Positions 6,422 to 40,594 of a stretch of DNA of 51,550 nucleotides are shown piece after piece. The stretch is from positions 1 through 51,550 of IMG/VR virus record IMGVR_UViG_3300013132_003493; one strand, 5' to 3'. The notes under the pieces were generated by a model that ran no database searches, was not told where the DNA came from, and was given only the letters and a program-made list of their open reading frames with translations. Source of the stretch: a virus. The translations under genes and the position numbers were made by a program. Position 1 is the first letter of the stretch. Each line of letters starts with the position of its first letter.

Positions 6422-6450
6422 GGTGGGGATTTCTCCCCACCTTTTTTTTT
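6422..6450 (+). terminator. GC-rich stem-loop with T-tract on the plus strand
   Basis: GGTGGGGA (6422-6429) and TCCCCACC (6434-6441) form an 8-bp stem. Nine T follow on the plus strand (6442-6450), abutting the sheath stop codon. By the usual rule this terminates plus-strand (antisense) transcription, although both flanking genes are on the minus strand. On the minus strand the loop is GAAA and the stem may stop or stabilise the sheath mRNA, but no T-tract follows there. Confidence 0.6.
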
Positions 6451-9400
6451 AGATATTTTCGAAAGAAGCTCCAGTCGGAGTAATCAAGAATTCAATATCA
6501 ATGAATTCAAGAGCTTTCGTTGGTTTTAAGTAAATCTTACCCGACATGGTGTTTCTATCCAAGTCTTCTGGTGAGTTACTTACAGTGACACGGAAGTCAT
6601 AAAGACCACGGTCTCTTCTGATTGCGTCAAGGATAGGGTTGACTGAGTCAAGGAAATCCTGACGAACCTTAGCGTCATTTTGTTCAAACAACAATCTAAC
6701 CGCAACTGCCGAGATCAACTTACGTGCCTGTAGTAACAATCTTCTTACGTTGATTCTGTTAAGAGCAGTGTCAGCGATTTGAAGGGTCTTGTTACCCCAA
6801 ATTACAGTGCCTACGTCAGAGAAGGTAGCGATTGGGTTAATACGACCTTGGTAAAGAGTATCTCTTTGGTCTTGTGTTAGTTTGATACGTGCCTTGACAG
6901 CATTTACCAAACCTCTTGTGTAACCCGCAGTTGCGAACCAAGGGAATGAGATGTTATCTGTAAGAGCCAAGTTTCTACAAACCTCATTTGTTGGTGGGAT
7001 GTATATTTGGGTGTTGTTTACAGTATCTCTAACCAAGATCCATGGGTAGTAGGTTGCTGTATAGTTTGAATCAATTCCTGTTTGATCAAGTCTATCAACC
7101 GCTTGAGTTGGTGGAATAATGTTGTCCGTTTGGGTTGGTATATAAACATTACAATCAGGTGTGGTAACAATATAAATTGAATCAGCTCTTTGGAATGTAA
7201 CCATATCAATCGCTTGTTCAACCAAGTTACTGTTGTTTACGTAATCAATACCTGGTGTTGCGAATACGTTGATGTTTACCGCTTCAGGGTTATTGAATGT
7301 TGCGATACCTAACAAGTAAGCGTAGTAGTCCGAGTTAGAGAATTCTGCAAAACCTTCCTGTGTTGTGGTCTTAAACGCTCCCCATCCTGTTGCTAAAGGA
7401 TAACGAGTTGAGGGACACGCTCCTTTCTGCCATAAACTACCACCAATCATATATCGGTCGTCATTTGTTCTATTTTCTCTGTAGATGTCCCAACCATCAA
7501 AACCACCTTGTAACAAGAAAGAATATTTTCTAGCTTGGATAGTGTAGTAGGGGTTAGTAGGATTCTGAGGATCAGATTGGAAAGATGCGTCTCCACAATC
7601 AAATGCTGGTGTTCCTGCAGTAGGTCCAGTAGTAATGGTCACAACTGTCGCACCTGAGTCCATGTGGAAACCTTTAGTAACGTAATTCCAACGTAGAGCG
7701 TCAGTTTCAATACACAAGTTACTCGGAACTTGCTTTCCTTTGTATTGATAAAAATCAGGGTCATATCCAATTTGTGATGATATTCCCAAGAAAGTACGTC
7801 TTACGTTGTCCCCCGGAGAAATAATTGGGTTAGGTCCTGCGGGTACGTTGAAAGGTGGGTTACCAACAACTTCACCCGGAAAATCATACGATGTTTTATA
7901 AACAGGATATGGTGGAGTTGCGTTTCCGTACTCACGAATTACATAACCCTCGAATCCACAAGGAAGTGCGTCGATCGGAGCTGTCTCGTTCAATTCCAGC
8001 ATAATATACTTAGAATTCAACGCGTACTCCCCGTCCGCGGTACCCACTTGTACTCCAACATAGTTGTTGTTACCTGGATCCATACTACAGTTAGTGTACT
8101 TCTCTAAGTAAACTGGGTTAGCGTCAGTATCGAAGAAACTTCTAACACCAAGATCAAACGTACCATTGTTAAATGAAATGTTTTGAATTGAGATTTTTAT
8201 TTGTGTGTTTGCCGTGTTACCATCCGCAATTGAAATAACTTTGAAAAGTCTATCTACTGTGGTACCACGGAGTTCAGAAACAACCCATGGAGATTCAGGA
8301 CTTTGATATTTTTCAAGATAGTAAGCAATTGTATCAGTATTTGGTGAGTATCTCAGACCAGGTAAAGCTACAAAAGTAGAATTCAATCCACGGATGAGAC
8401 CTTTGTTGTAACCCAAGTTTAGCATGTTTTGGAATGTTTCCTCAACAAACAAAGGAACTTCATTTCTTGGTTTACCGAAATTAGTACCACCGAAAACTTT
8501 AGTAATATAATTTTGGTCGGAAGAGTTAAGGGACGTTGTGAACGCAAAGTCCGTACCGTCAGTGGTCATACCTGAAATGTTGAAAGTAGCGTATGGACTT
8601 GAGCTAATTCCTGAGTATATACCACTATTATCTATTATAACATCTGTCAAACCTGATACAGTGTATTGAGGACCATCGTTAGACCCACCATATAAAGAAA
8701 TTCCACGAGATCTCAGTGTAGCAACAACAAGGTTATTCCAATCTGCGAAAGCAGTACCAGAATAACTGTATATATTACCCGTTACAGTACCTGAATAACA
8801 ACCCGAACCTAAATCTTCAAAATTGTTTACAATACTATAGAAAGAATATCCTGAGTAGTTGTTACCAGTAGTTATGTCAAAATTAGAGTAATACCAAGCA
8901 TCATTATTTGGTGAGGTGTAGTCGGCAACACTTTGTGAAAGTCCAGACACACCGAAAACGTTAGTTTCTGCGGTATAAACGGGTGACAAGAAATTGTAAG
9001 CCGCATCAGTCACAGTACCAAAGTAAGAAATTGAAGAACCTGAACCAACTCCACCATTATCAATCAAGTCTAATAATTGGTTATTCAAGTCATTAGAAAT
9101 TGTTGTTTGTGAACCATTCAATTGAGTGTAAGGTTCTGTTAGGTTAGCGTTTATAATTGATGGAAACGCAGTTATGAATGAAACCGCAGTATCACCGGTA
9201 CATCCTGAGAAATCAACTGACCAAGAAATCGGTGCTCCATTAAAACCAATTGAAGATCCGTCTACGTTAGCAATTGTGGTAATAGACCAAGAAGGTCCTG
9301 CATCATAACCAGATAAACCCAATACTCTTGTTACGAATAGTTGGTTTGATTGTTGTAAATAAGATTTAGCGATATATGCCAACTCGTATTTTGGAATTTG

Positions 9401-9610
9401 TGTATTGACAAATTTCTCGGGTAAAGTACCTCCGAAAAATGCCTCGAATTCATCGTAGCTTGTGATGAAAATAGGTTCAAATGCTGGACCCGTGATTGTT
9501 TCACCAACCAATCCCAAAGTTGTTACACCAACACTCTGAGATACGAAACTTAAATCTCTCTCAGAAGTGTAAACACCCGGAGAAACAAATATTTTATTTG
9601 ATACTGCCAT
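6449..9610 (-). CDS. Tail sheath protein, enlarged
   Basis: This 1053-residue contractile sheath subunit is much longer than T4 gp18 (659 residues). The N-terminus (SPGVYTSERDLSFVSQSVG, then TSYDEFEAFFGG) and the C-terminus (INVRRLLLQARKLISAVAVR, then VSNSPEDLDRNTMSGKIYL and FIDIEFLITPTG) are typical sheath family ends, which interlock neighbouring subunits. The extra length lies mostly between residues about 110 and 420, in Ser/Gly/Tyr/Asn-rich beta-type sequence (for example SGTVTGNIYSYSG), and probably forms surface-exposed domains. It is the first large gene of the tail operon after the gp15-like gene. A TATTTATG motif is 34 bases upstream of ATG 9610. A GC-rich stem-loop abuts the stop codon. 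Confidence 0.93.
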   Translation of the reverse strand: MAVSNKIFVSPGVYTSERDLSFVSQSVGVTTLGLVGETITGPAFEPIFITSYDEFEAFFGGTLPEKFVNTQIPKYELAYIAKSYLQQSNQLFVTRVLGLSGYDAGPSWSITTIANVDGSSIGFNGAPISWSVDFSGCTGDTAVSFITAFPSIINANLTEPYTQLNGSQTTISNDLNNQLLDLIDNGGVGSGSSISYFGTVTDAAYNFLSPVYTAETNVFGVSGLSQSVADYTSPNNDAWYYSNFDITTGNNYSGYSFYSIVNNFEDLGSGCYSGTVTGNIYSYSGTAFADWNNLVVATLRSRGISLYGGSNDGPQYTVSGLTDVIIDNSGIYSGISSSPYATFNISGMTTDGTDFAFTTSLNSSDQNYITKVFGGTNFGKPRNEVPLFVEETFQNMLNLGYNKGLIRGLNSTFVALPGLRYSPNTDTIAYYLEKYQSPESPWVVSELRGTTVDRLFKVISIADGNTANTQIKISIQNISFNNGTFDLGVRSFFDTDANPVYLEKYTNCSMDPGNNNYVGVQVGTADGEYALNSKYIMLELNETAPIDALPCGFEGYVIREYGNATPPYPVYKTSYDFPGEVVGNPPFNVPAGPNPIISPGDNVRRTFLGISSQIGYDPDFYQYKGKQVPSNLCIETDALRWNYVTKGFHMDSGATVVTITTGPTAGTPAFDCGDASFQSDPQNPTNPYYTIQARKYSFLLQGGFDGWDIYRENRTNDDRYMIGGSLWQKGACPSTRYPLATGWGAFKTTTQEGFAEFSNSDYYAYLLGIATFNNPEAVNINVFATPGIDYVNNSNLVEQAIDMVTFQRADSIYIVTTPDCNVYIPTQTDNIIPPTQAVDRLDQTGIDSNYTATYYPWILVRDTVNNTQIYIPPTNEVCRNLALTDNISFPWFATAGYTRGLVNAVKARIKLTQDQRDTLYQGRINPIATFSDVGTVIWGNKTLQIADTALNRINVRRLLLQARKLISAVAVRLLFEQNDAKVRQDFLDSVNPILDAIRRDRGLYDFRVTVSNSPEDLDRNTMSGKIYLKPTKALEFIDIEFLITPTGASFENI

Positions 9611-11482: not shown

Positions 11483-13249
11483 TTGGAAGAACAAACTAAC
11501 ATATCATCAGTTGGGGTTTTAGAACGTAAAGCCTTGGAGTTATTGGAAAAATACGATGGTGCCAATAACTATATTTTGCGTTTAAAAACTAAAATGTTGG
11601 ACAATTCTAAATTTTATCCGACAAGATCCCAATCAGAATATATTATAAATTTCCATTCTAGAGTTCCGAAGGTTGCCAAAAAATGGGTTGATTTGGACCC
11701 GTATTTTGCCCAAAAATTTGCTGATGATAAATTGTTTACTACCATTCCTCAGCAAATTTACATTGAAAAACTTCTTGTTGAGAAGGACACTTCTTATCAC
11801 ATTTGGGGTAAGTTTTTTGAAAAAGATTTCGTCCATGATTTTTGGATACCAAAAGTTGCTTTAGTTAGGGACAATACTGTAAAGAATGTTGAGATTGATT
11901 ATTCAAAGTATTCTCATCGTCCTCCATTAGAGCATCAGAAGGAGGCTATTCAAAAACTATGTGAAAACAAAAAAATGATTTTGGCTGATGATATGGGATT
12001 GGGAAAGACCACATCTACCATTATCGCAGCATTGGAGACGGGATCAAAGAAAATTATGATTATTTGTCCAGCATCTCTAAAAATAAATTGGCAAAGAGAG
12101 ATTGAAAATTATACCGATCGATCAACATCTATTATTGAGGGTAAGAAATGGGAAGACTCCGATTTTGTCATAATAAACTACGACATCATTAAAAATTTCC
12201 ACAATGAAAAAAATAAAAAAGAGTCAGTTATTCTTAATTCTAAGTTTGATTTGGTCATTATCGACGAGGCCCATTACATTCAAAATAAACAAGCCCAAAG
12301 AACCAAACTCATAAACGACTTCGCGTCTAAAGTTGAACGACTTTGGTTATTGACTGGTACCCCCATCACAAGTCGTCCTATAAACTACTACAATCTTCTC
12401 AATTTAATTGACTCACCCGTTGCGGTGAATTGGATGGCGTATGTCAAGAGATATTGTAATGGATTTCAATTCCGAGCTGGTAAGAGAAAAGTGTGGAATG
12501 TCAGTGGAGCGTCAAACTTGGAAGAACTCCGAGATCGTACTAAACCACAAGTTCTTCGTCGTCTAAAGGAAAATGTACTTGACCTTCCCGATAAAATTAT
12601 CACACCAGTATACCTGAGACTTCGTTCTAAACAATATGAGGAACTAATGGGTGACTATTACGATTGGTACGATAAAAGTGGTGAGGCAGACTCTTTGACA
12701 CTTCAGTTTACCAAATTGACCCAAGTTCGTCAGTGTATCGCTCAAGAGAAAGTATCCTCAACCATTGAACTGTGTGAAAACATTATTGAACAAGACAAAA
12801 AGGTAATTGTCTTTACCAATTTTACCAAAACCCTCGAGATGATTTTGGAACATTTCGGAAAGAAGGCGGTTAGACTTGATGGATCGATGAACCAAAGAGA
12901 ACGACAAGAGGCTGTCGACAAATTTCAAAATGATGACTCGGTAAAAGTATTTGTGGGGAACATCAAAGCTGCCGGTACAGGTATTACCCTAACATCGGGT
13001 GAAGCGATAGTTATGAACGATTTATCGTTCCTTCCATCAGACCACTCACAAGCGGAGGACAGAGCATACCGCTACGGACAAAAAAATAATGTATTGGTTT
13101 ATTACCCCATTTTCGACAACACAATTGAAGGGATTATTTACGATATCCTACGTAAGAAAAAGGATATTTTTGAAACCGTGATGGGGGACAAAGAATCAAC
13201 GGGAGACTATGTTGAAGAAATTCTTAAGTCGATCAATAGTAGAAGATAA
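11483..13249 (+). CDS. SNF2-family DNA helicase/translocase
   Basis: This 588-residue superfamily 2 ATPase has the motifs in order: Q-like PPLEHQKEAIQKL, Walker A ILADDMGLGKTTSTI, Ia IICPASLKINWQRE, DEAH box LVIIDEAHYIQNKQ, motif III LLTGTPITSRP, motif IV VIVFTNFTKTLEMI, motif V AAGTGITLTSG, and motif VI SQAEDRAYRYGQKN. This is the SNF2/SMARCAL1-like layout, and the protein probably remodels forks or recombination intermediates, comparable in role (not in sequence) to T4 UvsW. The only in-frame start near the 5' end is TTG 11483, directly after an in-frame TAG. The first ATG is 37 codons later and would remove conserved-looking sequence. It is divergent from the tail operon and carries no TATTTATA motif, so it may be transcribed early. 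Confidence 0.9.
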   Translation: MEEQTNISSVGVLERKALELLEKYDGANNYILRLKTKMLDNSKFYPTRSQSEYIINFHSRVPKVAKKWVDLDPYFAQKFADDKLFTTIPQQIYIEKLLVEKDTSYHIWGKFFEKDFVHDFWIPKVALVRDNTVKNVEIDYSKYSHRPPLEHQKEAIQKLCENKKMILADDMGLGKTTSTIIAALETGSKKIMIICPASLKINWQREIENYTDRSTSIIEGKKWEDSDFVIINYDIIKNFHNEKNKKESVILNSKFDLVIIDEAHYIQNKQAQRTKLINDFASKVERLWLLTGTPITSRPINYYNLLNLIDSPVAVNWMAYVKRYCNGFQFRAGKRKVWNVSGASNLEELRDRTKPQVLRRLKENVLDLPDKIITPVYLRLRSKQYEELMGDYYDWYDKSGEADSLTLQFTKLTQVRQCIAQEKVSSTIELCENIIEQDKKVIVFTNFTKTLEMILEHFGKKAVRLDGSMNQRERQEAVDKFQNDDSVKVFVGNIKAAGTGITLTSGEAIVMNDLSFLPSDHSQAEDRAYRYGQKNNVLVYYPIFDNTIEGIIYDILRKKKDIFETVMGDKESTGDYVEEILKSINSRR

Positions 13250-13260
13250 TAAGTTGGGGG

Positions 13261-13268
13261 TATTTATA
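13261..13268 (+). promoter_or_regulatory. Late-promoter-like motif TATTTATA
   Basis: TATTTATA (preceded by G) lies 26 bases before ATG 13295 of the SOD fusion gene, just after the helicase stop. Confidence 0.5.
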
Positions 13269-13294: not shown

Positions 13295-14824
13295 ATGAGA
13301 AATCTTAAAAAGAAGATTCATGATATAGAACAGAACCTTCAAAACAAACAAACCATCAAAGAAGAATCCCTTCACGAAGCCAAAAAAATTAGAGCAGAAA
13401 AACTACCTTACGGATATTCAGCACTTCGTCAATTCATTGACCCTGAAACGATGAATATCCACTACAACAAACATTATAAAGGTTATATTAGCAAACTCAA
13501 CGATGCTCTAGAAGGAAAAGACTTGGGTGATATTTCACTCGAGGAAATTATCAGAACAATCGAAAGATATTCAAAGGTTGTGAGAGACAATGCTGGTGGA
13601 GCCTTCAACCACGCGATATTTTGGAAAATGTTGTCCCCCACCGAAATGGAACCAAAAGGTGAAATCCTAAAGAAAATTGATTCGAATTTCGGGTCATTAT
13701 CTGAATTCAAAAAGAAATTTGAGGATTACGCAAAGAAAAGATTCGGTTCAGGGTGGGTATGGCTTGTTCTTACCAAAAGAGGAACTCTGAAAATTATGAC
13801 AACGGCAAACCAAGACAATCCACTCATGGATGTTATCAAACAAGGTGGTTATCCACTTCTTGGTTTGGATTTATGGGAACACGCCTACTACCTCAAGTAC
13901 AGAAACAAAAGGGATGAATACATCAAAAACTTTTGGAAGGTAGTGAATTGGGATTTTGTGGATAGTGAATACCAAAGAATCACCAACAAAGGTATCAAAG
14001 AAAGTAGTACAGTAAAAAAAATATTATCAGAACAAAGAATTGCTAATCCTTGTTCAGAAAAAGATCGTGCGGTTATAAGAGAAATGTTCAATAACAATTC
14101 AGAGTTACTTGATTTGTATAGTGATGGTATAAAAAAGATTTTATCACAAGCGTTTCCCGACAAATACTATGGAGCAGGTGAATACCAAAAAGGAACCGCA
14201 CCTGGCATATACGATTTAGAAAAACCAGGTAGATCAATTATCAACTACCTCAACACAAATTACAGTACATTTTGTCCCCTACTCAAAGATTTGAATAGGG
14301 TGTTGGAAGTTTATAATAAAAAACCAATAGAATTTGAAGGTGTATCACCAGAAGAACAAATGTTCCAAATGAGAAGAATGCTCAAGTTCATTTCCGAACT
14401 AAAGGAAAGAATATTTGATCCAAACGCAAGAACATTCCAAACCATATTTCAAATACTAAACGCAACATCAAACAAAGGTTCCAAAACCGAAGACATAGTT
14501 GAGAAGAAATTCAAACAAAAATTTGGTCCCGAAAATATAAAAAAAATTGGTGCTTTGGGAAGCAAAGAGGATATGATGGGGGTTGATATGAAAATTACCA
14601 TTAATGGTAAAGAACATACTGCACAGGTCAAACCCTTTAATTCAATCCAAGAAATTGACGAGATGTTCAGAATTGAAGGTACAGCGAATGTAAAAAAATA
14701 TAAAACTGATTGGATGGTCTTTGTCAAAAGAGGAAGGGAGTTTGTAATCTTCGACAACCGAAATGCTCAGATAATAGACGGAACATATAATTTCCCAAAA
14801 GACTCTCTATTGTACCAATTCTAA
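13295..14824 (+). CDS. Superoxide dismutase (Mn/Fe type) fused to a nuclease-like C-terminal region
   Basis: This is a 509-residue fusion. Residues about 35-225 are a full Mn/Fe superoxide dismutase: LPYGYSALRQFIDPETMNIH, ligands His56, His106 (AFNHAIFW), Asp192 and His196 (LGLDLWEHAYYLKY), and FGSGWVWLV. All four metal ligands are present. Gln173 in TANQDNPLM and Gly in the AFNH region resemble Mn-type rather than Fe-type enzymes. Residues 226-390 are helical and unrecognised. Residues about 395-509 contain Glu403, GSKEDMMGVDMKI (Asp431) and HTAQVKPF (Gln444-x-Lys446), the spacing of a PD-(D/E)xK-type nuclease core with Gln for the acidic residue. A charged 30-residue N-terminal helix precedes the SOD. 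ATG 13295 follows a TATTTATA motif, so it may be a late or virion-associated protein. The SOD call is near certain; the nuclease call is tentative. Confidence 0.88.
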   Translation: MRNLKKKIHDIEQNLQNKQTIKEESLHEAKKIRAEKLPYGYSALRQFIDPETMNIHYNKHYKGYISKLNDALEGKDLGDISLEEIIRTIERYSKVVRDNAGGAFNHAIFWKMLSPTEMEPKGEILKKIDSNFGSLSEFKKKFEDYAKKRFGSGWVWLVLTKRGTLKIMTTANQDNPLMDVIKQGGYPLLGLDLWEHAYYLKYRNKRDEYIKNFWKVVNWDFVDSEYQRITNKGIKESSTVKKILSEQRIANPCSEKDRAVIREMFNNNSELLDLYSDGIKKILSQAFPDKYYGAGEYQKGTAPGIYDLEKPGRSIINYLNTNYSTFCPLLKDLNRVLEVYNKKPIEFEGVSPEEQMFQMRRMLKFISELKERIFDPNARTFQTIFQILNATSNKGSKTEDIVEKKFKQKFGPENIKKIGALGSKEDMMGVDMKITINGKEHTAQVKPFNSIQEIDEMFRIEGTANVKKYKTDWMVFVKRGREFVIFDNRNAQIIDGTYNFPKDSLLYQF

Positions 14825-14856: not shown

Positions 14857-15975
14857 ATGGCAGTTATACCAGAACCAGAAAGAACCAGGTTATATAATAG
14901 AATCCTGAATTTATTGGGGGCTCCTCTTAGAGCCGTAGAATTGGAATACGAAATGATGGATTCCCTTTTAGAATTATCAATTCAAGATTATGCCGAATAT
15001 GTTCAGGATTGGTTGATTGAATCTCAATGGACTACCCTTTACGGTTTGAACTTGGATACACAGTCTTTGGCAAATGCTTTGGTTAGAAGATCTTTGGATT
15101 GGGAAACACAATACACATACGCCTATTCAAAAATTGCTGGTTTACAAAATGCCGGTCCGTGGGTACTAAAAAGGGATTATATCAGTTTGGTACCTAATCA
15201 ACAAATTTATGAAATTCCGGCATGTAGGGAGATCAATCAACTATTATGGTATTCTCCAACTGAAATGAATAACATGATGTTTGATCCATGGTCTTTCGGT
15301 GCTCTTGGTGGTGCCGGAGGATTGGGAGGGCCAGGTGGATTTGCTCAATCAGGATATGGTGGTGGGGGATACTTCTTTTTTTCATCATATGATGTAATGT
15401 CTCGTCTACAAGATATAAACGTAAAAAGAAGACTAATCCAACCCGATTTACAATACCAAGTAACTGCACTTCCTGACGGAAAACACGCGATTTGGTTGTT
15501 CAATACACCGGGTGGAAGGTTTGATTTTGGAGATTCTGAACTTATGAGAGGTCAAGTTTGGTATTGGTATTATGAAGTATGTGAAGATGAAAGAGATCTT
15601 TGTCTACAAGACAATCCTGATATTGTAAGACTTCCATCGGACATTCCATTGGATACCATCAATTGGGACGATCTTAATGAACCAGCAAGAATTTGGGTTA
15701 GAAGATGGTTTACCGCATATTGTAAAGAAACTTTAGCACGTGTAAGAGGTAAATTTAGTGGTAATCTAAAAACACCTGATAGTGAGGTTCAAATGGACTA
15801 TCAATCTTTACAAACTGAGGCTAAAGATGAAAAGGTAACTCTTTTGACTGAATTACAAGGAAGGTTAGAAAGATTACGACCTGAAAATCAAATGAAAAAA
15901 GAGGCTGAAATTGCAACCAATTTGAATACTCAATTGAAATTCAGACCTATGACAATACCAATTACTGTAGTATAA
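14857..15975 (+). CDS. Neck/head completion protein (T4 gp13-like, tentative)
   Basis: This 372-residue protein has the N-terminal pattern RTRLYNRILNLLGAPLRAVELE, followed by MDSLLELSIQDYAEYVQDWLI. This resembles neck proteins of T4-type phages, which begin with a helix pair around a small acidic segment. A Gly-rich loop (GALGGAGGLGGPGGF, residues about 147-165) interrupts the middle. The C-terminal half contains INWDDLNEPARIWVRRWFTAYCKETLARVRGKFSGN and LLTELQGRLERLRPENQ, helical and typical of connector proteins. It is coupled to the next gene by a one-base overlap (TAATG). The gp13 assignment is by recalled pattern and by the nearby gp15-like gene, although that gene is on the other strand. 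It could be another connector. Confidence 0.5.
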   Translation: MAVIPEPERTRLYNRILNLLGAPLRAVELEYEMMDSLLELSIQDYAEYVQDWLIESQWTTLYGLNLDTQSLANALVRRSLDWETQYTYAYSKIAGLQNAGPWVLKRDYISLVPNQQIYEIPACREINQLLWYSPTEMNNMMFDPWSFGALGGAGGLGGPGGFAQSGYGGGGYFFFSSYDVMSRLQDINVKRRLIQPDLQYQVTALPDGKHAIWLFNTPGGRFDFGDSELMRGQVWYWYYEVCEDERDLCLQDNPDIVRLPSDIPLDTINWDDLNEPARIWVRRWFTAYCKETLARVRGKFSGNLKTPDSEVQMDYQSLQTEAKDEKVTLLTELQGRLERLRPENQMKKEAEIATNLNTQLKFRPMTIPITVV

Positions 15976-19616: not shown

Positions 19617-21293
19617 CTAAGATTCTTTTCTTAGTTTTCCGTCGTAAAATTCAAATCTATTATGTTCAGTGGGGGTCATCAATAACATACCTGGTGTAAT
19701 ATTCCATTTCACAGTTTCTTGATAAATGTAACTCATCCAAGTTTGCTCGAATGGGTGTGCCCATTTTTCAGTCAAAAACATTTTTTTATTACCATACTTC
19801 GTGATAATTTGTGGCCAATTACTATAGTAAATCTCACCATCAATAAATGGCACTCCTTTGTGACTTCGAATATTTTGAAATTTTGTTCGTGGGGCGTTAG
19901 GGTCTTGTCCTTGGACAGGTAGTGTAGATTTTTCGGGCCATTGTTTTTCTCGGAAAAATTGTGGGACATTGTACCATGACCATTGTGTTCCGTTGTCACC
20001 AAAAAACTCTGTGTAATTTAGTTTCAGGAAATCAAAATCCTGTTTTTTCACGATCTCCAAAGTCTTTTGATAAAGGTTTGGAACATATCTGTTGAATCCG
20101 TTTTTACAAGTTGTACCTTCTTCAGGGAAGAAGAACATATCATCCTCGAAAAATAAATAAAAATCAAACTCATTTTCATCCGCATGTTCAGCAATCCATT
20201 GTCGACCACCACAAATACCAAGATTATCCATCTTGATATGTTCAAAAACATATTTTTGACATAAGTCTTCATAGTCATTGGTTGTTTCCAAATCAGATGA
20301 ATTATTCAACAAATATTTTTTTGGTTTTTCAATGTAGTCTTTATCGTAATCGATCATCGAGGTAATCAAAGTCTCGAATTGTTTTGGACTGTTGAAGGTT
20401 ATTACGTATAGAGCGGTGTTTTGAATGTTCAGGTCTAAATTTACAGATTTGGTCAAACTTTTAGATTTCTTTACTAGTGTTTCGTTTTTCAGGTCTTCAA
20501 AGAACTTCCACATCAAACCGTTACCCTCTATTTCATAGTAATTTATCAAATCTGAATGTTTGTATACCATGATCGAGAATATTGATTCTTCAGTTCCCAT
20601 GAGTCCATTGAAAAGTGTGTTACTCAACAAATTGTAATAAATTCCATTGATATCACTTATAACTGATTTGGGACCTCCGAAAAATCCACCTCGTGCAACT
20701 ATATCCACTTTACCACCCACCAACTTATTTATTTCATTGGAGTTGAATCCATGTATTTCCGACGATGCTTCATATGGGAAACAAACAAAGGTAAATTTGT
20801 CAGAGTATTTCGATAACTTATGTAAAACCTTATCATGAGTAAAATAACCTGGATGGACAGTATTAGTAAGACCGGCATCAATCCAAAACATATAATCTGA
20901 TCTGAATTGATCCATAATATTTGCATCATTGAGTAAAAATACTTTAGACATTACAAGTGGATTGTACATCTCAAGTTTAGCCTGAGTTGATTCTCTCAAC
21001 CATCCTGCTTGAGATAACCAATTTTTGTCATTTCTGATTTCTTGAATTTTATCGAAGAATTCATTTTTGAACCATGTTTGTGACCTAACTATGAATTGTG
21101 TATTACTTCTATCTCTATGTTGAAATACGAATTTTTCTAACTCTTCTTCACCAAAAATTATCATGTTATTATCCACAGATAATAATTGTTGGAACTTCTC
21201 AAGATAATGATCGTAAGATCTTGACCATCCTTCAGATAATTCACCTCTTTTGATGTCCCATAATCCTGTTACTAAAGTAATGTTACTACTCAT
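19617..21293 (-). CDS. Two-domain glycosyltransferase: HtrL/YibB-like plus GT-A domain
   Basis: In this 558-residue protein, the N-terminal half (about 1-285) has the HtrL/YibB/WlaTC character. It starts ITLVTGLWDIKRGELSEGWSR, then RSQTWFKNEFFDKI, LNDANIMDQFRSDYMFWIDAG, and GGFFGGPKSVISDI. The C-terminal half (about 305-558) looks like a second GT-A glycosyltransferase: ALYVITFNSPKQFETLI, the acidic cluster FYLFFEDDMFFFPEEG as the probable nucleotide-sugar/metal site, and a conserved-looking PFEQTWMSYIYQE. It is the last gene of the minus-strand run that begins with two mucin-stalk genes, 5 bases after the methyltransferase. Substrates are unknown. The length is about twice a single-domain enzyme, consistent with a fusion. 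Confidence 0.75.
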   Translation of the reverse strand: MSSNITLVTGLWDIKRGELSEGWSRSYDHYLEKFQQLLSVDNNMIIFGEEELEKFVFQHRDRSNTQFIVRSQTWFKNEFFDKIQEIRNDKNWLSQAGWLRESTQAKLEMYNPLVMSKVFLLNDANIMDQFRSDYMFWIDAGLTNTVHPGYFTHDKVLHKLSKYSDKFTFVCFPYEASSEIHGFNSNEINKLVGGKVDIVARGGFFGGPKSVISDINGIYYNLLSNTLFNGLMGTEESIFSIMVYKHSDLINYYEIEGNGLMWKFFEDLKNETLVKKSKSLTKSVNLDLNIQNTALYVITFNSPKQFETLITSMIDYDKDYIEKPKKYLLNNSSDLETTNDYEDLCQKYVFEHIKMDNLGICGGRQWIAEHADENEFDFYLFFEDDMFFFPEEGTTCKNGFNRYVPNLYQKTLEIVKKQDFDFLKLNYTEFFGDNGTQWSWYNVPQFFREKQWPEKSTLPVQGQDPNAPRTKFQNIRSHKGVPFIDGEIYYSNWPQIITKYGNKKMFLTEKWAHPFEQTWMSYIYQETVKWNITPGMLLMTPTEHNRFEFYDGKLRKES

Positions 21294-21298
21294 TTCGC

Positions 21299-21985
21299 TT
21301 ATTTGATTTTACAAACCCAAGCAACATCCAAAAAATTCTGATTCATGTAGGGTTTCAAATTATTTTTACTGACGGATTCTTCGATGTCTGAATCTTGTAT
21401 TTCCATCCAGTTCCATTTTTTACCATTCATATATTGGTCAAAGTATTCTTGATTAGGTGAGTAATCATGACCCATTATAATATCACCTTGTTTGATAAGG
21501 TCAGAAATCATACGAAATTCATTCTTTTTACTACCACCATCACATAATATAATTACCCTATTATGTGAGGTAATAAGATTGAGGATTTCCAACTTATCTT
21601 CTGAGGAATTCCAATCAGAATAATTGTGGGAAAATAAGTTTTTTACTCTGATTTCAATTTGGTCCTTGGTTGTTTTTTGTATTAAAAAATTTGGTGAGTT
21701 CACATCATAAGTGATTAAACGAGTTTTTTCCAAACCATTATGGTCGAGGATGTCACGTAACATCAATGTCAATCCGCCATGGAAGGTGCCTATTTCTAAA
21801 ACCAAATCAGGTTTAATTTCATCAAACAATTTGTCAAATGCAAAAATGACATTCGGATTTTGTTCCATAGAAATTCCTTTATAACTACAATGGGTGACAA
21901 CGCCGTTTTCAAAATTTTTTGAAAAAAAGTCTCCTTCGATACAGTTAGATCCAGAACACATCAAGTTTTTTATTATATTTTCCAT
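21299..21985 (-). CDS. SAM-dependent methyltransferase, CmcI-like
   Basis: This 228-residue protein has a class I methyltransferase core: PDLVLEIGTFHGGLTLMLRD (motif I, ExGxxxG), RLITYDVNSPNF, NRVIILCDGGSKKNEF, and GDIIMGHDYSPNQEYFD. The CDGGS and GHDY signatures match cephalosporin-hydroxylase (CmcI)-type O-methyltransferases, including rhamnosyl O-methyltransferases, which often sit in polysaccharide clusters. Its context among glycosyltransferases supports glycan O-methylation. Its ATG overlaps the stop of the preceding glycosyltransferase by one base (21985). Confidence 0.75.
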   Translation of the reverse strand: MENIIKNLMCSGSNCIEGDFFSKNFENGVVTHCSYKGISMEQNPNVIFAFDKLFDEIKPDLVLEIGTFHGGLTLMLRDILDHNGLEKTRLITYDVNSPNFLIQKTTKDQIEIRVKNLFSHNYSDWNSSEDKLEILNLITSHNRVIILCDGGSKKNEFRMISDLIKQGDIIMGHDYSPNQEYFDQYMNGKKWNWMEIQDSDIEESVSKNNLKPYMNQNFLDVAWVCKIK

Positions 21986-22974
21986 TATTTCAATAAATTC
22001 AAATTTATTTTTTTAGATATAAATCTTAGGTTTGATTCCATTTTACAATTTCTATCAAACCATTCTTTAGCATTTTTAGATATAAAATTGAGGTATTCAC
22101 TATCGTTCTTAACTTTGTTCCAAGTGTATATAAGATTTTTTTTGAAATCCTCGTAAGACTGATAACTTGGGTACCCCATTGGATTATAGTCACAAGGATG
22201 GTAAAAACTTATGTAGTGGTAATTTGGTATGAGAGGATCCTCAAAATTAATTTGTAACGCAGGTCTTACAACAGGTACACCTATCCCAAAACATTCAATG
22301 TCTCGGTTACAAATTTCAGTTCCACCAGGTAAAGACAAAGCCGCTTTGTATTTCCTCATCTCTTTCAAATATTCAATATAGTCCAAATTTTGTCCATCTT
22401 GGTTTTTGTCAATTATTAAGATATCGGATTGATTTAAGTTATCTGTCATCAACTTTCTTGAATCCCACATCCACCCTCTGAAAAATAATTCATTATTTTT
22501 TTGAGGTAATTTGGAGATTTGATCCATTTCATCATAACAACAATCAAAATATGGATTATAAAAAAATGGTTGATAGACCTCTTTTATATTTTGAGGAAAT
22601 TCGTTGTCTTTATTATTCTGATTTACCAACTTAAAGTTGTAATAGTCGGCAAAATTAAAACCACCAGCATAGAAAAATTGTTTCATTTGTTTGGGTTTCC
22701 AACCCAAATGGGTCATAAAATGATACCTCCAATTATCGAATAGTGATAAAAGAATGTAATTCTCATTTTCGGGATTGATAATCGAAAAACTCATACAAGA
22801 CGACGTCGAACCATAACCGAAATTATCATAATCGTGATTTGAATCTAATTCAAAATCATGTTCGGGATATTGGGATTTTAATAGATCAATTAACTGCCTG
22901 AATAAAGCCGTTACATAAAATTCTCTACCACCCATCAACATGTGTCGGAGTTGATGTCGAATCACAAATTTCAT
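21985..22974 (-). CDS. Glycosyltransferase-like protein (exostosin/CAP10-type fold, tentative)
   Basis: This 329-residue protein opens MKFVIRHQLRHMLMGGREFY. Its C-terminal half has a nucleotide-sugar-binding look: KAALSLPGGTEICNRDIECF, then GIGVPVVRPALQINF and a final helix NAKEWFDRNC. The pattern 'alslpG..e.cnR.iE.fgiGvPvv' is common to GT-B-type enzymes that bind the donor through the C-terminal lobe. I cannot place it in one CAZy family. It is 2 bases from the GlcNAc-transferase gene upstream and overlaps the methyltransferase downstream, so it belongs to one operon. Confidence 0.6.
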   Translation of the reverse strand: MKFVIRHQLRHMLMGGREFYVTALFRQLIDLLKSQYPEHDFELDSNHDYDNFGYGSTSSCMSFSIINPENENYILLSLFDNWRYHFMTHLGWKPKQMKQFFYAGGFNFADYYNFKLVNQNNKDNEFPQNIKEVYQPFFYNPYFDCCYDEMDQISKLPQKNNELFFRGWMWDSRKLMTDNLNQSDILIIDKNQDGQNLDYIEYLKEMRKYKAALSLPGGTEICNRDIECFGIGVPVVRPALQINFEDPLIPNYHYISFYHPCDYNPMGYPSYQSYEDFKKNLIYTWNKVKNDSEYLNFISKNAKEWFDRNCKMESNLRFISKKINLNLLK

Positions 22975-22976
22975 AA

Positions 22977-24224
22977 CTACAAGTTTCCGGTTATTCTCTC
23001 ACACCACCCCTTAGATGTTGAATATGGCCAAACAACCCAATAAGTTGGTTTTGTGTCCGTTTGGAATTCTCTCCAAACTTTACCATAACCATCAGGATCA
23101 TTCATAATTCTTTGGATTTCTCCTTTGTCGGCATCTTTTCTGAACAAAGTTTCATCATTTGGCCCATGGAAGGCAACCACCCAAAATTCATAATCTTTTT
23201 CTGATACCGATGAATAATTGATATCAATACAATGTTTGAATACAGATGCAAAATTCTTCATCCATTCCTCTTCCGTCTCATACGGATATGGATTTGGTGG
23301 GTAGTGCTTGTCAAGTGTGTACTGTTGAACCGCTCTTTTACTAAACAATAGACCCGCATATTTTTCATAATCTCTAAGAGTACGAACAGGACCAAAACCC
23401 CAAGGACCATCGTGTCCTTCTTGTTCCAAACCATCCATTCCAAACAACTTGCGATTCAAAAGGTGTGATTGAGTATTTTTGTTGCCCCAAGTCTTATCAT
23501 CATCCCACTGTTTGGTTCTACCCTTTCTCGTGTATTCGTGCCAAATTAATACTTTATGTGGGTGAAATAAATCATAACCCCATGTGTATGCTCTCGCAGC
23601 TATTGAAATTTCCTCACCATGGAAATAGTATTCAGGATTGTGTTGTACTTCAGTTGAGAACTGACCCAATGTAAACGCGTAGTGGGCTGAATAGAATCTC
23701 GCAGAAACTGGTTCGGATAATTCTTTCCAACCAGGAATTGTTTCAGGTAAGAAAAATACGGCACCTTCGGGAATAAATCTGTCAAATGCCATCCTCCATG
23801 GTTCTTGAACTCTACCCTGTGGATCATTATCGGGATCAAAAGAAGAAACATAACCTGTAAGAAGAGGTTTTTTATAACCCTTCTTTTGAAGTTGTTTTAT
23901 CATCTTAATCATTTCATCGTCCCAATTTTGTGCGAACCTCATATGAGAATCTATTTGAAGTGTGTATTCTTCACCTTCATATAATTGTTGAACTAAGTTT
24001 CTAGCCCAACAAACACCGTTTGACTCTTGATATGGTACATTTAAAATTCTGAATCTACTGTCATTTTCGAATTCAGATAAGTCATCAAATTTATCGTCAG
24101 GATGGAATTGTCTTGCTATACCAATTCTCAAATTTTTGGGCCTTTTAGCATTTTCCAACATATTTTTGATTGTCAGAATAAGTTGGGGGTCACGATAAGA
24201 TGCTATCTGAATGAATATCTTCAT
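22977..24224 (-). CDS. GlcNAc-transferase-family glycosyltransferase (Skp1 GnT-like)
   Basis: This 415-residue GT-A enzyme begins MKIFIQIASYRDPQLILTIKN, a hallmark of the Glycosyltransferase (GlcNAc) family that includes the Dictyostelium Skp1 hydroxyproline GlcNAc-transferase. Further family features are GVCWARNLVQQLYEGEEYTL, the metal motif QIDSHMRFAQNWDD (DxH), YYFHGEEISIAARAYTWGYD and LIWHEYTRKGRTKQW. Members transfer GlcNAc-type sugars to proteins or glycans. It immediately follows, on the same strand, the gene for the Thr/Pro-rich stalk protein, with a probable terminator between them. That makes the stalk an attractive acceptor, though this is inference. Confidence 0.85.
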   Translation of the reverse strand: MKIFIQIASYRDPQLILTIKNMLENAKRPKNLRIGIARQFHPDDKFDDLSEFENDSRFRILNVPYQESNGVCWARNLVQQLYEGEEYTLQIDSHMRFAQNWDDEMIKMIKQLQKKGYKKPLLTGYVSSFDPDNDPQGRVQEPWRMAFDRFIPEGAVFFLPETIPGWKELSEPVSARFYSAHYAFTLGQFSTEVQHNPEYYFHGEEISIAARAYTWGYDLFHPHKVLIWHEYTRKGRTKQWDDDKTWGNKNTQSHLLNRKLFGMDGLEQEGHDGPWGFGPVRTLRDYEKYAGLLFSKRAVQQYTLDKHYPPNPYPYETEEEWMKNFASVFKHCIDINYSSVSEKDYEFWVVAFHGPNDETLFRKDADKGEIQRIMNDPDGYGKVWREFQTDTKPTYWVVWPYSTSKGWCERITGNL

Positions 24225-31304: not shown

Positions 31305-31312
31305 TATTTATT
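31305..31312 (+). promoter_or_regulatory. Late-promoter-like motif TATTTATT
   Basis: TATTTATT lies 37 bases before ATG 31350, after the stop of the 192-residue gene. It is the only copy seen in the glycan cluster, so it may be fortuitous. Confidence 0.3.
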
Positions 31313-31349
31313 GTTTATAATTCCTATATTTTGGGAAAAAAACAATTCT

Positions 31350-32558
31350 ATGTCCAAAATTAATGTTTTAGTAATACCCTCTGACAAATCGGGTGTGGGT
31401 AAATATAGATCTATTGATCCACACGTAATTTTACAAAATCAATACCCTGACGACTTTCACGTTGATATTCTTTTCCAAGTTCCCATGAACGACATGAATT
31501 TTTGGAAAAAGTATCAAATTGTCCATTTTCACCGTACTTTGGGTGATTACGATAACACACCTAACTTGTTGGGAATACTTAAATCCATGGGAATTGTTAC
31601 TATTATGGATTTGGATGATTATTGGTTACCAGGTAAAGAACACCCAATTCACGATCTCATTGTAACCAATAAAATTCATGAAAAAATTGTAAACAACTTA
31701 CGTCACTCACAGTATGTGATGACAACAACATCAGTATTTGCCACAGAAATTTCTAAGTATAATAAAAACGTAGTTGTTTTTCCAAACGCAATAAACGCAA
31801 AAGAAACTCAGTTCAATGAACCAACATTACCAAGTGAGAAATTACGATTTGGGTGGTTGGGAGGTTCTTCTCATCTTCATGATCTTATGCTACTTGATGG
31901 TGTTTTTCCTAAAATGTATCAACACAAAGACCAATCGCAATTTTATCTTTGTGGTTTTGATACTCGAGGTACAGTAACCGAAATCAACAAACAAACGGGT
32001 GAACAAAAACAACGTCCAATCCGACCTGAAGAAACTGTCTGGAAAAAATACGAAGAAATTTTCACTAACAAGTACAAATTGATTAGTCCTGAATACAAAG
32101 TATTTTTGGATATGTTTTCTGAAGATGATGATTCCAAATTTTCTCATGAATTCTATCGTAGAGTATGGACTAGACCTGTTCAATCATACGCAAAGAATTA
32201 TTCTAAATTTGATGTTTCCTTGGCACCAATAAAAAACCATTTGTTTAACCGAGTAAAATCTCAACTCAAGGTAATTGAAGCTGGTTTCTACAAAAAGGCT
32301 ATTATAGCCTCAAACGTAGGTCCTTATACTATCGATTTGAAACATGCACTAAATCAAGGTGAGTTTGTTGATGGAAACGCTCTACTTGTGGACGAAGGAA
32401 GAAACAATAGTGATTGGTACAAATACATCAAAAAGTTAATTGATAATCCATCATGGGCAACTGATTTAGGAGAAAGACTATACGAAACTGTAAAAGACAA
32501 ATATGATTTGAATGTTGTCATTAAGGACCGTGCCGAATTTTATAAATCTATACTATGA
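31350..32558 (+). CDS. GT-B glycosyltransferase (group 1/GT4-like)
   Basis: This 402-residue protein starts at ATG 31350 (MSKINVLVIPSDKSGVGKYR); an upstream in-frame TTG is less likely. The GT-B layout is visible: an N-terminal lobe with VGKYRSIDPH and VHFHRTLGDY, DLDDYWLPGKEHP, a lobe junction VVFPNAINAKE followed by RFGWLGGSSHLHDL (donor loop), and a C-terminal RVKSQLKVIEAGFYKKAIIA with ENALLVDEG-type end. It is the first gene of a 14-kb plus-strand glycan cluster and overlaps the exonuclease gene by 4 bases. The acceptor is unknown. Confidence 0.8.
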   Translation: MSKINVLVIPSDKSGVGKYRSIDPHVILQNQYPDDFHVDILFQVPMNDMNFWKKYQIVHFHRTLGDYDNTPNLLGILKSMGIVTIMDLDDYWLPGKEHPIHDLIVTNKIHEKIVNNLRHSQYVMTTTSVFATEISKYNKNVVVFPNAINAKETQFNEPTLPSEKLRFGWLGGSSHLHDLMLLDGVFPKMYQHKDQSQFYLCGFDTRGTVTEINKQTGEQKQRPIRPEETVWKKYEEIFTNKYKLISPEYKVFLDMFSEDDDSKFSHEFYRRVWTRPVQSYAKNYSKFDVSLAPIKNHLFNRVKSQLKVIEAGFYKKAIIASNVGPYTIDLKHALNQGEFVDGNALLVDEGRNNSDWYKYIKKLIDNPSWATDLGERLYETVKDKYDLNVVIKDRAEFYKSIL

Positions 32559-33256
32559 TACCACAATCTATAAACAAAATCCTTTTTTTTGACATTGAGA
32601 CCGTTGGTATTACCAAGGATTACGATGAATTGTCTGAAAAATATCCTGCACTTCAAAAACAACTTCATAACTACTACGATTGGTTTCTAAAAAGATTTCC
32701 TGAAGATCAGGGTTTAGACGCTTCTCAGGTTTTTGTAAACCGAGCCGCTCTTGTACCTGAATTCTCTAGAATTGTTTGTGCTAGTTTTGCCTTTGTAACT
32801 CCTGACGGTAAAATTCATAAACAAACGTTTGCAGATAAAGATGAAATGAAATTATTGGAGGGAGTGAACGCACTTTTAGACAAAGTTTTCAAATTAGATT
32901 TTTGGTTGTGTGGACACAATATTAAAATGTTCGACATACCGGTATTACAAAAAAGAATGGTAATTAATGGTATCAAACCATCAGTATTATTACCCGGATA
33001 TGATACTAAACCATGGGAAATAAAGGCTATTGATACCATGGATATTTGGAAGATGGGAAATAATTTTGCTCTGTCATCTTTAGAACTCATGTGTGCGGCT
33101 ATGGGTGTACCATCACCAAAAGAAGGTGAGGTTACAGGAAACCGCGTTCATGAGGCGTATTACGACTACGATCAACTTGATCTAATCATCGAGTATTGTG
33201 AGAGAGATGTAGAAGTATTGATTAACTTGATAAAGAAATTCAAAGAACTCAAATAA
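32555..33256 (+). CDS. 3'-5' exonuclease related to the PolB exonuclease domain
   Basis: This 233-residue DEDD exonuclease shows KILFFDIETVGI (Exo I), WLCGHNIKMFDIPVLQKR (Exo II) and IIEYCERDVEVLINL (Exo III, YxxxD). It belongs to the predicted PolB-type exonuclease family (DNA_pol_B_exo2). It is separate from the exonuclease within the polymerase encoded at 16251-19094 and may act in repair or recombination, as a DexA-like nuclease. It overlaps both neighbours by 1-4 bases, so it is in an operon with a glycosyltransferase and dUTPase. Confidence 0.85.
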   Translation: MIPQSINKILFFDIETVGITKDYDELSEKYPALQKQLHNYYDWFLKRFPEDQGLDASQVFVNRAALVPEFSRIVCASFAFVTPDGKIHKQTFADKDEMKLLEGVNALLDKVFKLDFWLCGHNIKMFDIPVLQKRMVINGIKPSVLLPGYDTKPWEIKAIDTMDIWKMGNNFALSSLELMCAAMGVPSPKEGEVTGNRVHEAYYDYDQLDLIIEYCERDVEVLINLIKKFKELK

Positions 33257-33846
33257 TGTCTAAAAACGATTCATTCCCCGAAGATCTCGATAAGATACTC
33301 CAAAGACTTCAAAATCAACTTGATGAGTTAGATTCAGGTGTGATCGATGAAATTGATGGAATCGAGATAAAAAATTTAGAAGATGTATATAATCAAATCC
33401 AACCAAAATTAGATTTGAAATATCGAAAGGATCACTCGACGGCGGTTGATCCTTTCTATAACTACGATTCTGACTCAGGATTTGATTTATTTTCAGTTGA
33501 AGAAGTTCAATTTTTACCATTCGAGAGAAAATTGGTTTCAACAGGGTTGTTTTTCGATATTCCTGAGAATTATGAAATACAAGTCCGAACTAAAAGTGGA
33601 TTGGCAATAAATCAAGGTCTGATTGTTCTGAATAGTCCGGGAACTGTAGATCAGGGATATACGGGTGAAATAAAAGTTATTTTGATGAATATGAATAACT
33701 ATTCAATCACTATTGATCAGGGTCAAAAAATTGCACAAGCAGTCCTTTCACCTGTAGTGAGTGGTAAGTGGGTAAAATTAGTTGAACAAAATAAAATTAA
33801 TCAAAAAGATCGAGGAGACAATGGATTTGGGTCAACAGGAATATAA
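33256..33846 (+). CDS. dut: dUTP pyrophosphatase
   Basis: This 196-residue trimeric dUTPase hydrolyses dUTP to dUMP and PPi, keeping uracil out of phage DNA. All five family motifs are present: SDSGFDLFS (I), VRTKSGLAINQG (II), GTVDQGYTGEIKV (III), QGQKIAQAVL (IV) and RGDNGFGSTG (V). It has an extra N-terminal stretch of about 60 residues, acidic and helical (FPEDLDKILQRLQNQLDELD), not typical of the 150-residue core enzyme. Its ATG overlaps the previous stop by one base. The following HAD gene starts 26 bases before its stop, inside the motif V coding region. Confidence 0.93.
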   Translation: MSKNDSFPEDLDKILQRLQNQLDELDSGVIDEIDGIEIKNLEDVYNQIQPKLDLKYRKDHSTAVDPFYNYDSDSGFDLFSVEEVQFLPFERKLVSTGLFFDIPENYEIQVRTKSGLAINQGLIVLNSPGTVDQGYTGEIKVILMNMNNYSITIDQGQKIAQAVLSPVVSGKWVKLVEQNKINQKDRGDNGFGSTGI

Positions 33847-34231
33847 TGGAAATACTATCAGTCCAGTCTTACCTGATGGTATTAAAAACTACCTAATTGA
33901 TATTGATGGGACAATTACTGAAGATGTTCCAAATGAGGAACCGTGGAGAATGGAAACCTGTTTACCCTACCCAGGGTCGGTCGATACCATAAATGATTGG
34001 TACAATGAAGGTCACATAATTACTTTCTTTACTTCAAGAACTGAGGATCATCGTAAAGTGACTGAGGAATGGCTTCAAAATCATGGGTATTTTTACCACA
34101 ACTTATTGATGAACAAACCCAGAGGTGGAAACTACCATTGGATTGATAATCATATTGTCAGAGCCACACGATATGAGGGTAAGTGGAACAAAATGACTAA
34201 AAAAACTTTTGACATAGAAGTATTCGAATAA
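33821..34231 (+). CDS. Small HAD-superfamily phosphatase-like protein
   Basis: This 136-residue protein starts at ATG 33821, preceded by GAGGAG, one of the clearest Shine-Dalgarno sites in the window. An in-frame TTG further upstream is unlikely. It has HAD motif I NYLIDIDGTITED (DxDGT), motif II ITFFTSRTEDH and a C-terminal WIDNHIVRATRYEGKW. The cap is minimal, as in small phosphatases acting on sugar or nucleotide phosphates that accompany capsule clusters. A role in heptose phosphate metabolism (GmhB-like) is possible because heptose-type genes lie at 40957-42112, but the motifs do not match GmhB closely. It is coupled to the next glycosyltransferase by one base. Confidence 0.75.
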   Translation: MDLGQQEYNGNTISPVLPDGIKNYLIDIDGTITEDVPNEEPWRMETCLPYPGSVDTINDWYNEGHIITFFTSRTEDHRKVTEEWLQNHGYFYHNLLMNKPRGGNYHWIDNHIVRATRYEGKWNKMTKKTFDIEVFE

Positions 34232-35751: not shown

Positions 35752-35752
35752 A

Positions 35753-36403
35753 ATGAGTGAATTAATAAATGTAATTACCAGAACTTCAAACAGACCAAAG
35801 GCTTTTGATAGGAATTATAAATCAGTCAAAAGTCAAACGTACAAAAATATAAATCACATAGTAATTTACGATAATCCCCAAGATTATGAAAATTACGTTT
35901 CTAAATATTCAGATATAACTCTATTTGGAGTAGATAGAGAGGAACTGATCCAAAACTACAAAGGTCCAATTTTTACAAGTCGATTATTTTGGCCATCATA
36001 TCATAATTTGTATTTTAATCCAGTTTTAAAAACCATCGAAGATGGTTGGATAATTTTTTTGGATGATGATGATCTTTTTTTTGATGAAAATTCTGTACAA
36101 AAAATTGTGGATAATCTAAAAAATGAAGATACCCTATATATTTGGAAAATGTTGTCAGGTGGACATGCAATTATTCCAAGACAAATTACATTCAATATGA
36201 AAAAATTAGAACTTGGTAATATTGGTAGTAATTGTTTTACATTTCATTCCAAGTGGGCAAAGAAATACGAATGGGACGGATTCAAGTGTGGTGACTTTAG
36301 GTTTGTCGAGTCTTTAAGTAAGACCATTCCAAACCAAGAATGGATTGATCAGATTTTGGTTTTAGTACCATCGGCGGGTTTCGGTAAAAGAGTCGATAAC
36401 TAA
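35753..36403 (+). CDS. GT2-like glycosyltransferase
   Basis: This 216-residue, short GT-A domain shows INVITRTSNRPKAFDRNYKS, QTYKNINHIVIYDNPQDY, a strong acidic cluster WIIFLDDDDLFFDENS (the DxD metal site), and NCFTFHSKWAKKYEWDG. It is near the minimal size of the fold. The spacing to the upstream gene is 1 base and a 36-base AT-rich gap with a TTATAA palindrome follows. The sugar is unknown. Confidence 0.8.
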   Translation: MSELINVITRTSNRPKAFDRNYKSVKSQTYKNINHIVIYDNPQDYENYVSKYSDITLFGVDREELIQNYKGPIFTSRLFWPSYHNLYFNPVLKTIEDGWIIFLDDDDLFFDENSVQKIVDNLKNEDTLYIWKMLSGGHAIIPRQITFNMKKLELGNIGSNCFTFHSKWAKKYEWDGFKCGDFRFVESLSKTIPNQEWIDQILVLVPSAGFGKRVDN

Positions 36404-36439
36404 ATAATCTTATAATTATAGTTATAATCCCCTACCTAA

Positions 36440-38902: not shown

Positions 38903-38926
38903 AACAAACAATCACGATAAAATTTT

Positions 38927-40557: not shown

Positions 40558-40594
40558 TCTATACTTTTACTTATTGAATAATATCTTATAAAAA

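What the first reader, a model, noticed from the sequence alone, without database searches (positions are those of the whole stretch)
13295..14824. Mn/Fe superoxide dismutase fused to a nuclease-like domain in a phage
One intact frame joins a complete SOD (His56, His106, Asp192, His196; Mn-type Gln173) to about 280 further residues. The end of these has a D...QxK arrangement (Asp431, Gln444, Lys446) like a PD-(D/E)xK nuclease. SODs are rare in phages and I know of no such fusion. A virion-borne or late-expressed SOD could protect against host oxidative defence, or the SOD may supply Mn to the nuclease part. Alternatively, the C-terminus is a virion-docking domain.
Basis: partly seen in the sequence, partly recalled or inferred. 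Interest (0 to 1): 0.82.

Follow-up and report, generated by a model that had tools for sequence, protein, structure and literature searches.

The report
Phage capsid cargo: antioxidant enzyme plus nuclease
A widespread family of uncultured freshwater phages makes one long protein that joins an antioxidant enzyme (superoxide dismutase) to a DNA-cutting-type enzyme, and its conserved cut sites suggest it is loaded into the virus head, sliced apart there and injected into the bacterium at the start of infection.

Summary
One intact frame (13295-14824, 509 aa) joins a complete Mn/Fe superoxide dismutase to an unknown middle domain and a PD-(D/E)xK-type nuclease core. It is not a sequencing error: 117 distinct full-length fusions were compared, with all SOD ligands and the nuclease residues E399, D431, Q444 and K446 invariant. 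It lies between invariant [LIV]-x-E motifs (E28; E236 and E246), the cleavage signal of the T4 prohead protease gp21. The same phages encode a gp21-type protease and a gp23-type capsid protein with the same motif at its N-terminus. The gene has a late-promoter-like box (115 of 115 fusions). Two lineages lost just the SOD and kept the cut site(s). One sub-lineage also lost the N-terminal signal, and there most members have a Bacteroidota-type host promoter instead of the late box. Best reading: a T4-internal-protein-like precursor, packaged in the head via residues 1-28, cut into free SOD and free nuclease, and injected into a Bacteroidota host. Packaging, cleavage and enzyme activity are inferred, not measured. 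SOD genes in freshwater phages were already reported; I found no account of this precursor.

The parts
13261..13268 (+). TATTTATA late-promoter-like box, 27-34 bases before the start codon
   Evidence: Core TATTTAT lies within 60 bases upstream of 115/115 distinct fusions; in this window it also precedes tail sheath, tail tube and neck-like genes but not the helicase or the glycosyltransferase checked (31311-32558; its start is unsure)
13295..14824 (+). SOD-nuclease precursor gene, 509 aa
13295..13378 (+). Residues 1-28: predicted capsid-targeting propeptide (amphipathic helix ending in SLHE)
   Evidence: Predicted helix 2-26, pLDDT <50 at 19-29; [LIV]xE28 in 88/88; missing in the clade that switched promoter
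13376..13381 (+). Predicted cleavage site 1, E28|A29
   Evidence: E28 88/88, P3 L50/I20/V18
13397..13978 (+). Mn/Fe SOD domain (residues 35-228); ligands H56, H106, D192, H196
   Evidence: Pfam PF00081/PF02777; invariant ligands 117/117
14000..14005 (+). Predicted cleavage site 2a, E236|S237
   Evidence: E236 88/88, P3 L/I/V 99%, P1' mostly S/T
14030..14035 (+). Predicted cleavage site 2b, E246|Q247 (ILSE|Q; G/S/A/T in most relatives)
   Evidence: E246 87/88, P3 L55/I31
14051..14452 (+). Middle domain, residues 253-386, helical, no known family; C253 and NTNY (320-323) conserved
14456..14821 (+). PD-(D/E)xK nuclease-like domain, residues 388-509; E399, D426, D431, Q444, K446
   Evidence: Invariant 139/139; Foldseek to I-Ssp6803I and Hjc
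11483..13249 (+). Upstream neighbour: DNA helicase
   Evidence: phrog_62 1.6e-115; next to the family gene in 92/92 testable loci
14857..15975 (+). Downstream neighbour: head-tail adaptor/neck-like protein, own late box
   Evidence: phrog_211 4.7e-10; adjacent in 121/124 testable loci

Best explanation
The gene encodes a late-made internal head protein precursor of a T4-related, often jumbo-sized phage of Bacteroidota. Residues 1-28 act as a capsid-targeting sequence. Inside the prohead the phage's gp21-type protease cuts after E28 and after E236/E246, which frees an active Mn/Fe superoxide dismutase (about residues 29-236) and a middle-plus-PD-(D/E)xK nuclease (about 247-509). Both stay in the mature head and enter the host with the DNA. 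The SOD removes superoxide at the onset of infection (or protects the packaged genome), and the nuclease acts on DNA early in the cell (host DNA or a defence element). Shown by sequence: domains, invariant residues, sites, box, gene-content links, two losses of the SOD, promoter change. Inferred: packaging, cleavage, ejection, enzyme activity and biological purpose.
For: Of all columns with at least 95% Glu in 88 fusions, only 28, 236 and 246 (plus E195 in the SOD active site) have L/I/V at P3, and these three lie in the linkers flanking the SOD; the P2 columns and most nearby linker columns are highly variable. gp21 is known to cut after L/I-x-E and to remove capsid-targeting propeptides from internal proteins that are then ejected (PMC9026906). 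Nine of ten long contigs carry gp21-type PF03420 (E 1e-22 to 1e-26) and gp23 PF07068, and the gp23 N-termini carry INE|A. N-terminal LxE[AGSTQ] is enriched in the 322-kb relative (41 against 22.9 +/- 4.5 shuffled; internal control z 1.1). Late box 115/115, shared with sheath, tube, gp21 and scaffold-like genes. SOD lost cleanly in L225/L134 while both sites stay; a separate clade of 20 also lacks it. The CTS-less clade has a TTG-N-TAnnTTTG promoter in 6/8 against 0/128 others.
Against: No proteomics or cleavage data. The window is a fragment without its own gp21 or gp23 (inferred from relatives). Site 1 often has Met at P1' and Val at P3 in 18/88, looser than L/I-x-E. Late-box genes as a class are not significantly enriched for N-terminal LxE (p 0.1-0.5). 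The promoter switch is one clade, so probably one event. Nuclease fold matches are weak in E-value (best 0.02), with no sequence-level family hit. A packaged nuclease would have to spare the phage's own DNA; how is unknown.
Confidence: 0.7

Rival explanations
1. A bifunctional enzyme that stays in one piece in the infected cell: SOD and nuclease work as one chain (for example the SOD dimer brings two nuclease domains together), and the Glu positions are conserved for structural reasons.
For: Single frame kept in 117 distinct members; SOD dimer-interface Glu195 and His196 invariant.
Against: The SOD was lost twice without damage to the nuclease. E28, E236 and E246 lie in variable linkers but always with L/I/V at P3. 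The N-terminal segment was lost together with the late box.
Confidence: 0.13
2. An ordinary auxiliary metabolic gene: the SOD is made in the infected cell to protect the host from oxidative stress or protist grazing, as proposed for freshwater phages.
For: Kavagutti et al. list SOD among ROS-defence genes of freshwater phages (PMC6802176).
Against: Late-type promoter rather than early; a fused nuclease and protease motifs are not explained.
Confidence: 0.1
3. Packaged and cut as proposed, but the C-terminal part is a PD-(D/E)xK fold used for DNA binding or head structure without cutting.
For: The fold matches are weak in E-value and there is no sequence-level family match; the precursor would share a capsid with the phage's own DNA.
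Against: E399, D431, Q444 and K446 are invariant in 139/139, including SOD-less and CTS-less members.
Confidence: 0.15

Closest known systems
T4 internal head proteins (IPI-IPIII, Alt) with capsid-targeting sequences cut by gp21
   Same: N-terminal propeptide ending in an L/I-x-E-type site, late expression, gp21-type protease and gp23 capsid in the same phages, presumed ejection with DNA
   Different: Cargo is an SOD plus a nuclease-like domain in one precursor with sites on both sides of the SOD; propeptide 28 aa against 10-19; no direct proof of packaging
Chlorovirus PBCV-1 Cu/Zn SOD (a245r), late and packaged in the virion
   Same: Virus-encoded SOD, late gene, proposed to lower superoxide at infection (PMC7019647)
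   Different: Unrelated Cu/Zn fold, algal virus, stand-alone, no nuclease or protease release
Stand-alone phage Mn/Fe SODs (PA5oct-like Pseudomonas phages, Vibrio phage 2.275.O)
   Same: Mn/Fe SOD in large phages
   Different: About 27-31% identical to this SOD; the match does not reach the middle or nuclease part (residues 29-245 at most)
A0A6J5L953 'superoxide dismutase', uncultured Caudovirales phage (501 aa)
   Same: Same architecture by predicted structure and about 47% identity: a family member already in UniProt
   Different: Annotated only as SOD
PD-(D/E)xK nucleases I-Ssp6803I and archaeal Hjc resolvases
   Same: Fold of the C-terminal core and E...D...QxK layout
   Different: No significant sequence similarity; substrate unknown

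Membership tests
Mn/Fe superoxide dismutase (SodFM) | Both Pfam domains and the four metal ligands H, H, D, H | tested here: met
   PF00081 1.4e-20, PF02777 3.3e-41; ligands 117/117
Mn/Fe superoxide dismutase (SodFM) | Superoxide dismutation activity | not testable with these tools
   needs an enzyme assay
PD-(D/E)xK nuclease superfamily | E in helix 1, then D and (D/E/Q)xK on adjacent strands | tested here: met
   E399 in helix 379-410, D431 beside strand 432-436, Q444/K446 in strand 439-447; invariant 139/139
PD-(D/E)xK nuclease superfamily | Recognisable fold | tested here: met
   I-Ssp6803I prob 0.91-1.00 (best E 0.02), Hjc prob up to 0.80; E-values weak
PD-(D/E)xK nuclease superfamily | Sequence match to a curated family | tested here: not met
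   No Pfam, PHROG or PDB sequence hit with support; not a feature that every member of this very diverse superfamily shows
T4-type internal head protein | N-terminal propeptide ending at an L/I-x-E prohead-protease site | tested here: met
   [LIV]xE28 88/88, with V at P3 in 18
T4-type internal head protein | gp21-type protease and gp23 capsid in the same phage | tested here: met
   9/10 long relatives; the window itself is a fragment and these genes were not found in it
T4-type internal head protein | Late promoter | tested here: met
   TATTTAT 115/115; the box is deduced, the sigma factor was not identified
T4-type internal head protein | Present and cut in the virion, ejected into the host | not testable with these tools
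   needs virion mass spectrometry

The most novel reading that the evidence does not exclude
Phages deliver an antioxidant enzyme and a nuclease from one capsid-packaged precursor that the head protease cuts apart, with the SOD as a removable cassette; and a descendant lineage replaced virion delivery by early expression of the same nuclease from a host-type promoter, which suggests that the protein is needed at the very start of infection.
Probability: 0.5. Interest if true: 0.88.

Novelty: new variant of a known kind. Interest (0 to 1): 0.76.

Why it matters
If right, bacteriophages inject a superoxide dismutase, which would point to superoxide as an early threat to infection (a bacterial oxidative response) and gives a directly testable case. 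It also suggests that the T4 internal-protein route is a general cargo system in large uncultured phages, with cargo readable from LxE sites. The paired loss of the targeting signal and change from late to host-type promoter is a natural experiment on how phages choose between virion delivery and early expression.

Tried and rejected
Sequencing-error fusion: rejected, 117 distinct full-length members. Known family for the middle or C-terminal part: none in Pfam, PHROGs or PDB sequences; weak DNA polymerase X and TIR hits are chance. Fusion in annotated isolate phages: none; only stand-alone SODs, some apparently bacterial contamination in draft records. Middle-nuclease part in bacterial genomes: none found. 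Expected link between late box and N-terminal LxE across all genes of the 322-kb relative: not significant, so the genome-wide support rests on the shuffle test. A second SOD gene in SOD-less phages: none on contigs of up to 318 kb. Literature searches for a phage SOD fusion or packaged phage SOD found none; the library lacks most subscription papers.

Full report
1. The observation. Window 13295-14824 (+) is one open frame of 509 aa. Residues 35-224 match both Pfam domains of Mn/Fe SOD, closest in the PDB to Staphylococcus SOD. The rest has no Pfam or PHROG family.

2. It is a conserved family. A scan of IMG/VR with the protein found 307 loci encoding relatives. The 80 best align over most or all of the query, and those not cut off by a contig end are single-frame fusions down to about 47% identity. 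After further scans, 139 distinct proteins with the middle-nuclease part were compared: 118 with SOD (in one, L114, the SOD lies upstream but not in the same open frame) and 21 without. All SOD ligands and second-sphere residues are invariant in 117/117 fusions, and E399, D426, D431, Q444 and K446 in 139/139, including SOD-less members. No relative of the middle-nuclease part was found in bacterial genomes or in 50,697 phage records. UniProt, through BFVD, holds one member as 'superoxide dismutase' (A0A6J5L953) and a 1113-aa marine phage protein whose structure shares the middle-nuclease part.

3. The C-terminus. AlphaFold models are good (pLDDT 84 and 86). E399 sits in a long helix, D431 at the start of one strand and Q444-x-K446 in the next. 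Foldseek against the PDB puts I-Ssp6803I, a PD-(D/E)xK homing endonuclease, first (prob 1.00, E 0.02), with archaeal Hjc resolvases below. With the invariance this supports a nuclease core; E-values alone would not. Activity is untested.

4. The anatomy that changes the reading. Among columns with at least 95% Glu in 88 fusions, only E28, E236 and E246, besides the SOD active-site E195, have L/I/V two residues before. They lie in the segments before and after the SOD, where the P2 column and most neighbours vary widely: E28 88/88 with P3 L/I/V; E246 87/88 with P3 L/I in 86 and P1' G, Q, S, A or T in all but one. T4 gp21 cuts after L/I-x-E, and it removes 10-19-residue capsid-targeting propeptides from internal proteins that are later ejected (PMC9026906). 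Nine of ten long contigs of relatives (99-322 kb) carry a gp21-type protease and a gp23-type capsid protein whose N-terminal region holds the same motif, INE|A. In the 322-kb relative, N-terminal LxE[AGSTQ] is enriched over composition-preserving shuffles (41 against 22.9 +/- 4.5), with no such excess in an internal control stretch. A test linking this to the late box gene by gene was not significant.

5. Expression. TATTTAT lies within 60 bases upstream of 115/115 fusions, resembling the T4-type late promoter TATAAATA (PMC1524935). In the window it also precedes tail sheath, tail tube and the neck-like gene, not the helicase. In the 322-kb relative it precedes sheath, tube, protease and scaffold-like genes. 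Gene order helicase - this gene - neck-like protein is kept in 92/92 and 121/124 testable loci.

6. A natural experiment. On the tree of the middle-nuclease part, the SOD-bearing state is spread over all deep branches and the SOD is lost twice (quick method, midpoint root, so direction is likely, not proven). In L225/L134 the remaining protein is nearly identical to fusions such as L235 and just the SOD is gone, with both sites left (SINE|MKKI...IISE|GKSERC). In the other SOD-less clade, members with a long N-terminus keep one site behind an N-terminal helix (TLILSE|SKAEKC), and the late box stands before 12 of the 13 long-N-terminus SOD-less proteins. A subclade of eight has lost the N-terminal segment; six of eight carry a TTG-N17..25-TAnnTTTG promoter against 0/128 others, the Bacteroidota sigma-A type (PMC9723704). 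So loss of the packaging signal goes with a change from late to host-type transcription, as expected if the protein is needed at the start of infection. It is one clade, so one event. SOD-less contigs of up to 318 kb hold no other SOD.

7. Host and origin. The nearest cellular SODs are nearly all from Bacteroidota. Thirty-three phage SODs form one clade against 55 bacterial ones (SH-aLRT 100), so one acquisition followed by vertical descent is likely. Promoter type agrees with a Bacteroidota host. This is inference.

8. Mechanism and novelty. The best reading is a T4-internal-protein-like precursor whose cargo is an SOD and a nuclease, separated by the head protease. The nearest functional parallel is the virion-packaged Cu/Zn SOD of chlorovirus PBCV-1 (PMC7019647). 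Freshwater phage SODs were earlier read as host-protecting genes (PMC6802176). I found no description of this precursor in the open-access library. Known kind: T4-type internal proteins. New: the cargo, the double-site layout, the removable SOD cassette and the packaging-to-early-expression switch. Packaging, cutting and activities remain to be measured.

Noticed in passing
L181-L197 (322-kb relative), e.g. record positions 318599-319021, 300411-300788, 84363-85742, 39984-41579: Many unrelated proteins begin with short helical segments ending in [LI]xE (e.g. MKKVVRLSESDLTSLVKKIINE|APF, MKITSVLSNLITE|QSRF), which suggests a large set of head-packaged proteins in these phages.
   Followed up: partly
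L216, L217, L232, L243, L269, L275, upstream of the gene: A clade that lost the N-terminal segment carries a Bacteroidota-type -33/-7 promoter; in most of them the TATTTAT box is gone (L232 and L243 have one off position).
   Followed up: yes
BFVD A0A8D9CCA0 (1113 aa, uncultured marine phage): The middle-nuclease part (TMq 0.77, 22% identity) occurs inside a much longer protein, so other partners may exist.
   Followed up: no
window 6449-9610 (-): Very long tail sheath (1053 aa; the 1664-aa late-box gene at 146708-151702 of the 322-kb relative may be its counterpart, not checked) with the sheath domains only at the C-terminal end.
   Followed up: no
window 19617-24224 (-) and 31311-42112 (+): Several sugar-related genes: HtrL_YibB, GlcNAc glycosyltransferase, rhamnosyl O-methyltransferase-like, GtrB-like, UDP-glucose dehydrogenase-like; perhaps glycan or DNA decoration.
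   Followed up: no
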